From assembly GCA_947491935.1 (NCBI GenBank), contig CANLLF010000001.1, forward strand, positions 930,001 through 994,000: 64,000 bases of DNA, read 5' to 3'. Under the pieces are notes generated by a model. It was given only the letters and a program-made list of their open reading frames with translations. It was not told where the DNA came from and did not search any database. Positions 45,265 through 49,970 of this stretch are shown in pieces. The position numbers and the translations under genes are program-made. This DNA comes from an uncultured Roseicyclus sp. GTDB taxonomy: Bacteria > Pseudomonadota > Alphaproteobacteria > Rhodobacterales > Rhodobacteraceae. How positions within the stretch are numbered: position 1 is the stretch's first letter; each line of letters starts with the position of its first letter.

Positions 45265-45295
45265 TGTGATCACAGCGCAAAAAAGTGTGATCACA
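45265..45295 (-). promoter_or_regulatory. paired TGTGATCACA operator upstream of sucC
   Basis: Two identical ten-base palindromes at 45265-45274 and 45286-45295, centres 21 bp apart, about two helical turns. The same pair with the same spacing precedes sdhC at 49940. A CRP site would need six bases between TGTGA and TCACA, so it is not one. Confidence 0.75.
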
Positions 45296-45541
45296 AATTT
45301 TGGCAAGAAGAGTGGGGAGAGTGAGTCGCGCGCCACGATCGGCGCCGCCAGCAGGCCGTGAACCGCATCTAATTGCGTTGGGATATGGTCGTTCTTCGCG
45401 CGGGGTTACATTGGCCGGATGAAACGCCCAGATCGGTTTCCCGCGTGTCATCATCCGCGGCTCTCTCGATCCATAGCAGGCGCGGCGCACCGATATGCGA
45501 ATTGCGGGCGCACGCCCATTCACGCATGGCCCGAAACGCAA

Positions 45542-45563
45542 ATGGCGGCCCCAAGGCCGCCAT
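45542..45563 (-). terminator. mdh intrinsic terminator
   Basis: ATGGCGGCC/GGCCGCCAT nine-base perfect stem with a 4-base loop, 24 bases after the mdh stop. On the minus strand it is followed by TTTGCGTTT. It separates mdh from the suc operon. Confidence 0.75.
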
Positions 45564-45587
45564 CCAACAGACGTATACGACGTCAGC

Positions 45588-46550
45588 TCAGCTCAGCGTG
45601 TCGTCAATCGCCTTGCAGGCCTCCACAAGGCCTTTCACCGCATCCACGGAATTGTCGAACATCGCCTGTTCGTCCTTGGTCATCTTGATGTCAACGATAC
45701 GCTCGATGCCGCCAGCACCGATCACGGTGGGAACACCCACATACATGCCCTTCAGACCGAATGCGCCATCGACGTGGGCGGCGCAGGGCAGCACGCGCTT
45801 CTGGTCTTTCAGGTAGGCTTCGGCCATCTCGATGGCGGAGGTGGCGGGTGCGTAGAACGCCGATCCGGTTTTCAGCAGGCCCACGATCTCGGCGCCGCCG
45901 TCGCGGGTGCGCTGCACGATGGCATCGAGCTTCTCCTGCGTGGTCCAGCCCATCTCAACCAGATCCGGCAGCGGAATACCGGCCACGGTGGAATAACGGG
46001 TCAGCGGCACCATCGTGTCGCCATGGCCGCCCAGAACAAACGCGGTCACATCCTTCATGGACACGTCGAATTCCTCCGCGAGGAAGTGGCGGAACCGCGC
46101 GCTGTCGAGCACACCCGCCATGCCGCAGACTTTCTCATGGGGCAGGCCGCTGAATTCACGCAAGGCCCAGACCATCGCGTCCAGCGGATTGGTGATACAG
46201 ATCACGAAAGCGTCGGGCGCGTTGTCGCGGATGCCCTCACCGACGGATTTCATGACTTTCAGGTTGATGCCCAGCAGGTCATCGCGGCTCATCCCCGGCT
46301 TCCGGGCCACCCCGGCGGTGACGATGCAGACGTCTGCGCCCGCAATGTCCGCGTAGTCGTTGGAGCCCTTCATGCTGGCGTCGAATTTCTCGGACGGGCC
46401 GCTCTCGGCGATGTCGAGTGCTTTGCCCTGCGGAACCCCTTCCGCAATGTCGAAGAGGACAACGTCCCCCAGTTCTTTCAGGGCGGCAAGGTGGGCAAGC
46501 GTGCCCCCGATCTGTCCCGCGCCAATCAGCGCAATCTTGGGTCTGGCCAT
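45588..46550 (-). CDS. mdh: malate dehydrogenase
   Basis: 320 residues. NAD motif [18 protein letters not shown], substrate Arg loop [15 protein letters not shown], and catalytic His in [10 protein letters not shown]. It is of the LDH-like type usual in alphaproteobacteria. Oxidises malate to oxaloacetate. Own terminator downstream, so probably its own transcript. Confidence 0.97.
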
Positions 46551-46670
46551 CTCTCAAGGTCCTCGGTCCGGTGTTTCGGTCGGGCGGAGGGGTAGCCTCA
46601 GGCACCGGTCGGTGCAAGCCTTGGGATGCGCGGCGGATAGCCTCAACCAGCGGTTGAGACCCCTCCCGGA

Positions 46671-46979
46671 TCAGAGATCTTCGCCGGTCGCAACGGGGAT
46701 CATCGCTTCAAAATGCTGCCCCGCCGCCATCAGGCACATGGTGCCATCGGCCGAGGTGACGGTGATTGTCCAGCTGCCGGTTTCTTCCGACACGAACACC
46801 TCCATGATGCGATTATTCGGGGCAAGGCCCATGCCGCGCACCTGTTCACCGTAACGGCCGCTCAGCTGGGCGAGAACCATATCACGTTCCGCACAAAGCA
46901 TTCTTTGGGCACTTGCGCCTTGCGGCAACACCGATGCGGCGACCAAAGCGGGCAATACCACTTTCAGAAGACTCTTCAT
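46671..46979 (-). CDS. small exported protein
   Basis: 102 residues; signal peptide ending GASAQ. Mature part has two cysteines (MLCAERD and TMCLMAA), likely disulfide, and beta-rich text. Divergent from mcl2. No family recognised. Confidence 0.7.
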   Translation of the reverse strand: MKSLLKVVLPALVAASVLPQGASAQRMLCAERDMVLAQLSGRYGEQVRGMGLAPNNRIMEVFVSEETGSWTITVTSADGTMCLMAAGQHFEAMIPVATGEDL

Positions 46980-48123: not shown

Positions 48124-48674
48124 TATCCTGGATTCTTCTTGTCGCGGGTCTTGCGCTCTGGACGGGCGCACATCTTTGGAAACGCATCGCGCCAGCCTCA
48201 CGCGCGCGGTTCGGCGATGCGGGCAAGGGCATGGTGGCTGTCCTGATCGTCGCCTCCATCATCTTGATGGTGATCGGATATCGCGGCGCGTATGGCCCTG
48301 TCTGGTGGGGGCGGTCGCCCGCCCTTGTGGGCATCAACAACCTGCTGATGGTCTTCGCCTTCTACCTCTACGCCGCATCCGGCGCGAAGACGTGGATCAC
48401 CAGCAAGGTCAAGAACCCGCAACTGACGGGCTTCAAGATCTGGGCCTTCGCCCATCTTCTGGTGAACGGCGATCTGGCGTCTTTCGTGTTGTTTGGCGGC
48501 CTTCTGGCCTGGGCCGTGGCCGAGGTGATCGTCCTCAAACGCGCCGGCGTCCCGTGGGAGCCGCCCCACCCCGTGCCGGTGAAAAAGGAAGTCACGGCCA
48601 TCATGGCGACCGTCGTGGTGACAGCCGTTGTCATGGCGATCCATTACTGGCTCGGTGTCACACCCTGGGGATAA
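48120..48674 (+). CDS. NnrU-family membrane protein
   Basis: 184 residues, five or six hydrophobic segments. LWTGAHLWKRIAPASR near the start and 'WAFAHLLVNGDLASFVLFGG' match NnrU, first named in denitrifiers for a role with nitric oxide, but widespread without denitrification. Coupled to mcl2 by ATGA. Confidence 0.85.
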   Translation: MISWILLVAGLALWTGAHLWKRIAPASRARFGDAGKGMVAVLIVASIILMVIGYRGAYGPVWWGRSPALVGINNLLMVFAFYLYAASGAKTWITSKVKNPQLTGFKIWAFAHLLVNGDLASFVLFGGLLAWAVAEVIVLKRAGVPWEPPHPVPVKKEVTAIMATVVVTAVVMAIHYWLGVTPWG

Positions 48675-48678
48675 TCAC

Positions 48679-48882
48679 ATGCAGATTTACCGCCTGCTGA
48701 CGGAGGATGACACCTCCGCCTTCTGCCACAAGGTCTCCGAGGCCCTGTCCAAAGGCTGGACACTCCATGGCGATCCCACCATGTCCTTCGATGCCGCGCG
48801 CGGCGTCATGCGCTGTGGGCAAGCCGTGGTGAAAGACATCGACAGCCCCTATTCCCCAGACATGAAACTGGGCCAGCAATGA
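48679..48882 (+). CDS. DUF1737 protein
   Basis: 67 residues from ATG 48679. MQIYRLLTEDDTSAFCHKVS and KGWTLHGDPTMSFD match DUF1737, a small soluble domain. Its stop overlaps the mch start by four bases. Function unknown. Confidence 0.85.
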   Translation: MQIYRLLTEDDTSAFCHKVSEALSKGWTLHGDPTMSFDAARGVMRCGQAVVKDIDSPYSPDMKLGQQ

Positions 48883-49910
48883 CCAAAACCAATCCGGGCT
48901 ATTTCTTCGAGGATTACCGCGTTGGCCAGGTCCTCAACCATGCCACGCCGCGCACGCTGCATGATGGCGATGTGGCGATGTATCAGGCCCTCTACGGCCC
49001 CCGGTTCGCGCTGCAATCGTCGTGGGATTTTGCATCGCCGGGCTCTTCGCTCCGCAACCCGATCATGGATGACCTGATCACCTTCCACGCCGTGTTCGGA
49101 AAAACAGTCCCCGATATCTCGCTCAATGCCGTGGCCAATTTGGGATATGCCGAGGGCCGGTTCCTGGCCCGAGTGGAATCCGGCGACACGATCCGATCCG
49201 TATCAGAGGTGATCGGCCTGAAGGAAAACTCAAACGGCAAGACCGGCATCGTCTGGGTCCGCACGCGCGGGTTCAAGAATTTCGATGTGCCGGTGCTGGA
49301 CTATGTCCGTTGGGTGATGGTCCGCAAACGGGATGTCGCCGCCCGGGCGCCGGAGCCCGTTGTGCCGGATCTCGCCAAAATCGTGGCCGCTGAAGATCTC
49401 CACATCCCCGAGAGCCTGGATTGGTCCAGCTATGACTTCGCCGCCGCGGGGGAACCGCATCGTTGGGGCGATTACGACGTGGGCGAAATCATCGACCATG
49501 TCGATGGTGTCACCCTGACCGATCCCGAACACATGATGGCCACGCGGCTTTGGCAGAACACTGCCAAGGTGCATTTCGACGTGACGGCGCGCCCCAATGG
49601 CAAGCGCTTGATCTATGGCGGGCACATCATTTCCATGGCCCGCGCCCTGTCGTTCAACGGTCTGGCCAATGCGCAGCTCATTGCCGCGATCAATGCAGGC
49701 GCCCATGCCAACCCGGCCATGGCCGGTGACACGATCCGTGCGTGGTCTGAAGTGCTGGACAAGGCCGAGACCTCAAACTCGCATGTCGGCGCCCTGCGGT
49801 TGCGCCTTGTAGCGACCAAGGGCGCGGCGGGTGATCTGCGGGGCGAGGACGGCAAATACCTGCCAGACGTTCTGCTCGATCTCGACTATTGGGTGTTGAT
49901 TCCGGTCTGA
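48879..49910 (+). CDS. mch: mesaconyl-CoA hydratase (beta-methylmalyl-CoA dehydratase)
   Basis: 343 residues. MaoC/hot-dog fold in duplicate: PGYFFEDYRVGQVLNHAT opens the first half and 'RWGDYDVGEIIDHVDGVTL' the second. Mch hydrates mesaconyl-CoA to beta-methylmalyl-CoA in the ethylmalonyl-CoA pathway, which replaces the glyoxylate shunt for C2 assimilation. Coupled to DUF1737. Confidence 0.9.
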   Translation: MTKTNPGYFFEDYRVGQVLNHATPRTLHDGDVAMYQALYGPRFALQSSWDFASPGSSLRNPIMDDLITFHAVFGKTVPDISLNAVANLGYAEGRFLARVESGDTIRSVSEVIGLKENSNGKTGIVWVRTRGFKNFDVPVLDYVRWVMVRKRDVAARAPEPVVPDLAKIVAAEDLHIPESLDWSSYDFAAAGEPHRWGDYDVGEIIDHVDGVTLTDPEHMMATRLWQNTAKVHFDVTARPNGKRLIYGGHIISMARALSFNGLANAQLIAAINAGAHANPAMAGDTIRAWSEVLDKAETSNSHVGALRLRLVATKGAAGDLRGEDGKYLPDVLLDLDYWVLIPV

Positions 49911-49939
49911 ATAGAACCACCTCGGTACAACATAAGAAC

Positions 49940-49970
49940 TGTGATCACACCTTCAAATCTTGTGATCACA
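49940..49970 (+). promoter_or_regulatory. paired TGTGATCACA operator upstream of sdhC
   Basis: Palindromes at 49940-49949 and 49961-49970, centres 21 bp apart, 147 bases before the sdhC start. Identical core and spacing to the pair before sucC. Confidence 0.75.

What the first reader, a model, noticed from the sequence alone, without database searches (positions are those of the whole stretch)
45265..49970. Same paired TGTGATCACA operator in front of sucC and sdhC
The ten-base palindrome TGTGATCACA occurs twice at 45265-45295 and twice at 49940-49970. In both pairs the centres are exactly 21 bp apart, and each pair lies 110-180 bases upstream of the first gene of a TCA operon on its own strand. 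Two identical pairs at the same spacing are unlikely by chance. The lack of a spacer rules out CRP, and 21 bp favours two dimers on one face. The regulator is not identified; a GntR-type protein is one option. I noticed no other copy in the window but did not search exhaustively.
Basis: partly seen in the sequence, partly recalled or inferred. Interest (0 to 1): 0.75.

Follow-up and report, generated by a model that had tools for sequence, protein, structure and literature searches.

The report
Paired AkgR operators before TCA operons
Two identical pairs of a ten-base palindrome mark the promoters of two TCA-cycle operons in an alphaproteobacterium, and they are most likely the landing sites of AkgR, an already described GntR-family regulator whose probable gene lies 14-19 kb away in the same stretch of DNA.

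Summary
In detail: two pairs of TGTGATCACA, centres 21 bp apart, before sucC and sdhC, the only pairs at that spacing in the genome even with 3 mismatches. An exact pair (spacer 0-30) is in 258 of 394 genomes of the family but 2 of 285 sampled genomes of the class outside it; 30 of 30 loci inspected lie before sucC or sdhC.

The regulator can be named. GTGATCAC is reported among binding sites of AkgR, a GntR activator of Rhodobacter sphaeroides (PMC6365646), and RSP_0981 (AkgR) was predicted to control suc, sdh and kgd (PMC4344238). Its probable ortholog is at 30181-30828. An exact pair is in 255 of 364 genomes with the gene and 3 of 30 without. Fifteen AkgR-bearing genomes chosen for lacking an exact pair keep a degenerate one before sdhC; four nested lineages lack both gene and operators.

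So this is a known regulon. Rigid spacing, joint absence, and a site before akgR itself in 39 of 113 sequences are additions; the primary AkgR paper was not available.

The parts
45265..45274 (.). operator site, suc pair, the copy nearer to sucC
   Evidence: exact TGTGATCACA; pair conserved upstream of sucC in relatives
45286..45295 (.). operator site, suc pair, the copy farther from sucC
   Evidence: exact TGTGATCACA, centre 21 bp from the other
49940..49949 (.). operator site, sdh pair, the copy farther from sdhC
   Evidence: exact TGTGATCACA; pair conserved upstream of sdhC
49961..49970 (.). operator site, sdh pair, the copy nearer to sdhC
   Evidence: exact TGTGATCACA, centre 21 bp from the other
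43961..45154 (-). sucC, succinyl-CoA ligase beta; first gene behind the suc pair
   Evidence: NCBIfam NF001913, 584 bits
41049..41930 (-). sucD, succinyl-CoA ligase alpha
   Evidence: NCBIfam NF004230
35864..38818 (-). sucA, 2-oxoglutarate dehydrogenase E1
   Evidence: NCBIfam NF006914
34308..35858 (-). sucB, dihydrolipoyl succinyltransferase
   Evidence: NCBIfam NF004309
31225..32613 (-). lpd, dihydrolipoyl dehydrogenase
   Evidence: NCBIfam TIGR01350
50117..50500 (+). sdhC; first gene behind the sdh pair
   Evidence: NCBIfam TIGR02970
50514..50885 (+). sdhD
   Evidence: NCBIfam TIGR02968
50896..52716 (+). sdhA
   Evidence: NCBIfam TIGR01816
53688..54482 (+). sdhB
   Evidence: NCBIfam NF004616
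30181..30828 (+). probable akgR, GntR/FCD regulator, proposed binder of all four sites (start codon 30175 or 30181)
   Evidence: Pfam GntR and FCD; match at E<=1e-40 in 364 of 394 family genomes; co-occurrence with the operator

Best explanation
The two pairs are operators of AkgR, a GntR/FCD-family regulator whose probable gene is at 30181-30828 in the same window. Shown here: two exact palindrome pairs, conserved spacing, conserved targets, and co-occurrence and joint absence with the akgR gene. Taken from the literature: GTGATCAC is an AkgR site, and AkgR is an activator with suc, sdh and kgd as predicted targets. Inferred: one AkgR dimer sits on each palindrome, two dimers bind cooperatively two helical turns apart on one face upstream of each promoter, and they raise transcription of the suc-kgd-lpd genes and of sdhCDAB together, so that the 2-oxoglutarate-to-fumarate half of the TCA cycle is switched as one block. 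In about a third of the relatives examined, a single site just before akgR suggests that AkgR also limits its own synthesis; the window's genome has no such site.
For: Motif match to AkgR in print (PMC6365646, passage) and the same three target operons predicted for RSP_0981 (PMC4344238, passage). Exact pair in 258 of 394 family genomes, reversed-pattern control 0 in every row; 30 of 30 loci before sucC (25) or sdhC (5). AkgR match (E<=1e-40) in 364 of 394; exact pair in 255 of 364 with it against 3 of 30 without, Fisher p 8e-11 with no correction for kinship. AkgR-bearing genomes chosen for lacking an exact pair still have a pair of 15-19 of 20 matches before sdhC (15 of 15) and 18-19 before sucC (14 of 14), reached by 0 of 200 shuffles each; AkgR-lacking genomes: 1 of 14 and 1 of 14, both the same genome. 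Four nested lineages lack both. Spacing 21 in 77 and 20 in 7 of 84 upstream regions with 10-60 allowed, most of these regions having been chosen by the pattern. Site before akgR itself: exact in 31 of 113, GTGATCAC core in 39 of 113. A 40% identical GntR gene beside a TGTGATCACA pair in another family.
Against: No binding or expression was measured here. Four genomes have operators but no AkgR gene found: G114, G256, G264, G319; their assemblies are in 90-320 contigs, so gaps are likely but not shown. The mBio 2015 AkgR paper was not available. Activation versus repression cannot be read from the sequence; the site before akgR would suit repression. Nine of the 14 AkgR-lacking genomes in the tree are early branches, so much of the co-occurrence may be one event. 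In the class sample the reversed control matched in 2 of 289 genomes, as often as the pair did outside the family.
Confidence: 0.88

Rival explanations
1. Another of the 14 GntR/FCD proteins of this genome, or a non-GntR protein, binds the pairs; AkgR merely travels with it.
For: The genome has 14 FCD matches and only AkgR was profiled against the operator; four fragmented genomes have operators without a found AkgR gene.
Against: AkgR motif and targets in print; exact operator copies directly before akgR in 31 of 113 sequences; joint absence in nested lineages.
Confidence: 0.07
2. AkgR binds the sites but represses the two operons here, with a TCA metabolite as inducer.
For: Many FCD regulators are repressors (recalled); the copy before akgR, mostly about 20 bases before the estimated start codon, suits repression.
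Against: AkgR is called a transcriptional activator (PMC6365646); the suc and sdh pairs end 95-190 bp before the start codon, room for an upstream activator.
Confidence: 0.12
3. Chance or low-complexity repeat.
For: Single exact 10-mers are expected about twice per genome on base composition.
Against: Expected exact pairs with spacer 0-30 in 394 genomes about 0.01 on base composition; found in 258 genomes.
Confidence: 0.001
4. CRP/FNR-type operator.
For: TGTGA/TCACA half-sites resemble CRP's (recalled).
Against: The half-sites abut with no 6-bp spacer, here and in the relatives' pairs.
Confidence: 0.01

Closest known systems
AkgR (RSP_0981) regulon of Rhodobacter sphaeroides (Imam et al. 2015)
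   Same: Same core palindrome GTGATCAC, same regulator family, same target operons suc/kgd and sdh
   Different: Here both operons carry exact duplicated sites at a 21-bp period; whether the paper describes the pairing is not known to me (paper not held)
Deoxyribonate-cluster GntR PS417_07240 of Pseudomonas simiae (PMC6365646)
   Same: GTGATCAC palindrome; GntR protein 32% identical to AkgR according to the paper (passage)
   Different: Site at -47 to -40 of its own gene; different pathway
E. coli McbR (PDB 4p9f)
   Same: Closest solved structure by sequence to the window protein, E 1.7e-21
   Different: Operator and targets not compared here
CceR (LacI family, RSP_1663)
   Same: Also predicted to regulate TCA genes including sdh in R. 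sphaeroides (PMC4344238, passage)
   Different: Different family and a different inverted repeat

Membership tests
AkgR operator/regulon | GTGATCAC palindrome in the operator | tested here: met
   Exact at all four sites; 28 of 29 upstream regions of AkgR-bearing genomes without an exact pair score 17 or more of 20, one scores 15; motif from PMC6365646
AkgR operator/regulon | targets sucCD, sucAB (kgd) and sdh | tested here: met
   Genes named; position in relatives; target list from PMC4344238
AkgR operator/regulon | GntR/FCD ortholog of RSP_0981 encoded in the genome | tested here: inconclusive
   One match at 30181-30828.
AkgR operator/regulon | protein binds the site and activates | not testable with these tools
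   needs EMSA, ChIP or reporter
CRP/FNR site | TGTGA-N6-TCACA spacing (recalled) | tested here: not met
   no spacer between half-sites
GntR, FCD subfamily | GntR DNA-binding domain plus FCD domain | tested here: met
   Pfam PF00392 and PF07729 above cut-off
GntR, FCD subfamily | Asp/His/His/His metal site (recalled; not present in every FCD protein) | tested here: inconclusive
   Aligned residues are N136, H140, H183, D205, invariant in 114 sequences. Of the 13 paralogs, 11 have His at the last place and none has Asp; at the first place 6 have Asp and 3 Asn

The most novel reading that the evidence does not exclude
A family-wide two-dimer switch: AkgR reads only duplicated sites with a rigid 20/21-bp period at its targets, which keeps its regulon to two operons per genome and couples sdh and suc tightly. 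It senses its signal through an FCD pocket with Asp in place of the usual last His, and in many relatives it limits its own synthesis through a single site. Regulator and both operator pairs are lost together in separate lineages.
Probability: 0.4. Interest if true: 0.45.

Novelty: new member of a known kind. Interest (0 to 1): 0.3.

Why it matters
It names the likely regulator and its gene for an operator found by eye. It also indicates that one small regulon covering half of the TCA cycle is kept with near-fixed architecture across a large family of bacteria, and seems to be gained or lost as a unit. The genomes lacking both (G101, G048, G167, G029) are ready comparisons for asking what AkgR contributes.

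Tried and rejected
CRP was rejected on spacing. Extra targets in the window's genome: the other four exact copies form no pair; three I read, untested, as coding, and the one on contig C6 was not explained. In four close relatives searched for the single 10-mer, the same-genus genome G378 has 10 copies, among them two 114 bp apart as on the window genome's contig C4, and one about 2 kb beyond its AkgR gene; I did not read these loci gene by gene. A promoter element downstream of the pairs could not be made out from the column consensus. Extra copies in G125 (L187, beside a gene I read as MarR-like) and in G310 (L193) were not followed. The akgR gene of the window has no site better than 7 of 10 near its start. 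AkgR was not searched in the class sample, and no second GntR was profiled as a control.

Rows dropped: G066, G040 and G172 were left out (in-frame stop, split SdhA, no match), and 16 of the 20 regions are in the tree (three not given, one with SdhA cut by the region's end); branch supports were not looked at. The sequences may hold a species twice, once from the named and once from the unnamed collection; start codons there are estimated by alignment, and the row L141 is cut by the contig end.

Full report
Observation. The window holds four exact copies of TGTGATCACA, in two pairs with centres 21 bp apart, at the stated coordinates; shuffles give 0.02 copies. The suc pair ends 110 bp before the sucC ATG and the sdh pair 146 bp before the sdhC ATG. 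NCBIfam names sucC, sucD, sucA, sucB, lpd and sdhC, D, A, B; Pfam calls the gene upstream of the suc pair a lactate/malate dehydrogenase, probably mdh. In the whole genome (4.65 Mb) there are 8 copies of the 10-mer, and these two pairs are the only ones at a spacer of 11 with up to 3 mismatches and the only exact ones at spacers 0-30 (own row).

Conservation. With spacers of 0 to 30 allowed, an exact pair is in 258 of 394 genomes drawn from the same family, with the reversed pattern absent from every row. The 30 loci that opened all lie before sucC (25) or sdhC (5). In 84 distinct upstream regions (55 sucC, 29 sdhC; most from loci chosen by the pattern, 11 from loci chosen by AkgR) the best pair scores 18 to 20 of 20, at a spacing of 21 (77) or 20 (7), although 10-60 were allowed. 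In the class sample, the four genomes of the own family all have it, and 2 of the other 285 do, at spacers 12 and 14; the reversed control also matched in two genomes there. One of the two outside hits lies beside a GntR gene 40% identical to the window's.

Regulator. [quoted passage not shown] sphaeroides. PMC4344238 (passage read) predicts that RSP_0981, a GntR protein, controls succinyl-CoA synthetase, succinate dehydrogenase and 2-oxoglutarate dehydrogenase. That AkgR is RSP_0981 I recall from the abstract of the primary paper (Imam 2015, mBio), which is not held. Of the 14 FCD matches in the genome, one lies in the window, at 30181-30828 beside lpd. Relatives of it at 69-76% identity sit beside lpd (L067, L071) or beside sdhB (L072). 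In L072, counting reading frames from sdhA to the GntR gene is compatible with the number RSP_0981, but I made no proper gene call. The nearest named relative is Cereibacter ovatus, 94%.

Co-occurrence. A match to the protein is found in 364 of 394 family genomes at E<=1e-40. The exact pair is in 255 of these and in 3 of the 30 without it (ten of the 30 handles were not printed, and I derived them by elimination from the list). I then took 15 genomes without AkgR and 15 with AkgR but without an exact pair. Before sdhC, 15 of 15 AkgR genomes have a degenerate pair (15-19 of 20); before sucC, 14 of 14 (18-19; G037 had no sucC match). Without AkgR it is 1 of 14 and 1 of 14, both G114; G017 has a weak 14 of 20 before sucC (3 of 200 shuffles reach it); G172 had no match to either query. 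A tree of SdhA plus SucC (44 rows, midpoint root) puts nine of the 14 AkgR-lacking genomes among the early branches and five inside the AkgR clade; parsimony counts six changes. Four of these five (G101, G048, G167, G029) lack the operators too; G114 keeps them. G114, G256, G264 and G319 have operators but only weak GntR matches (best 35% identity, in G114); they are in 90-320 contigs.

Autoregulation. In 113 sequences upstream of AkgR genes, an exact site lies 17 to 65 bases before the estimated start codon in 31, and the GTGATCAC core is present in 39. For the 37 that score 9 or 10 of 10, none of 100 shuffles reached the score; for the two that score 8 with the core intact, 3 of 100 did. The window's own gene has no such site. 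A position near -20 suits repression; this is inference.

Mechanism. Shown: operator anatomy, spacing, targets, co-occurrence. From print: activator, core motif. Inferred: two AkgR dimers on one face, cooperative, activating both operons. The effector is unknown. The FCD residues aligned with the usual Asp-His-His-His metal site (recalled) are Asn136, His140, His183 and Asp205, invariant in 114 sequences; Asn at the first place also occurs in 3 of 13 paralogs, Asp at the last in none, so the site may be altered. The closest solved structure by sequence is E. coli McbR.

Verdict. The finding is real and its interpretation right in outline, but the system is a known one, so interest is modest. 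What is added here is the gene in the same window, the rigid pairing across the family, joint absence and the probable autoregulation. Library searches were made for AkgR, the 10-mer, GntR with suc and sdh terms, RSP_0981 and GTGATCAC with GntR. Seven listed papers hold the word AkgR; I saw passages of four. In what I saw the pairing is not described, but the library lacks the primary paper, so I do not claim that it is new.

Noticed in passing
window 30181-30828, residues N136, H140, H183, D205: The FCD pocket of the AkgR ortholog has Asp where 11 of 13 paralogs have His, and Asn at the first ligand place (as 3 paralogs have); invariant in 114 sequences.
   Followed up: partly
L199 (class relative outside the family): TGTGATCACA pair (spacer 14) between a GntR gene 40% identical to AkgR and a reading frame that looks like an aldehyde dehydrogenase, with a third copy upstream of the GntR gene.
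   Followed up: partly
L187 (genome G125, contig C6): Three TGTGATCACA copies at 15 and 27 bp steps beside a gene that looks like a MarR regulator; a possible extra target.
   Followed up: no
many family genomes: Many genomes have two matches to AkgR at E<=1e-40, and at least one (G193) has three; the role of the second copy is unknown.
   Followed up: no
window 42150-43891: Two reading frames, one with a methyltransferase domain, separate sucC from sucD.
   Followed up: no
L109 and L122: Four and three TGTGATCACA copies in a row before sucC, at 21, 21, 26 and 21, 26 bp steps.
   Followed up: no
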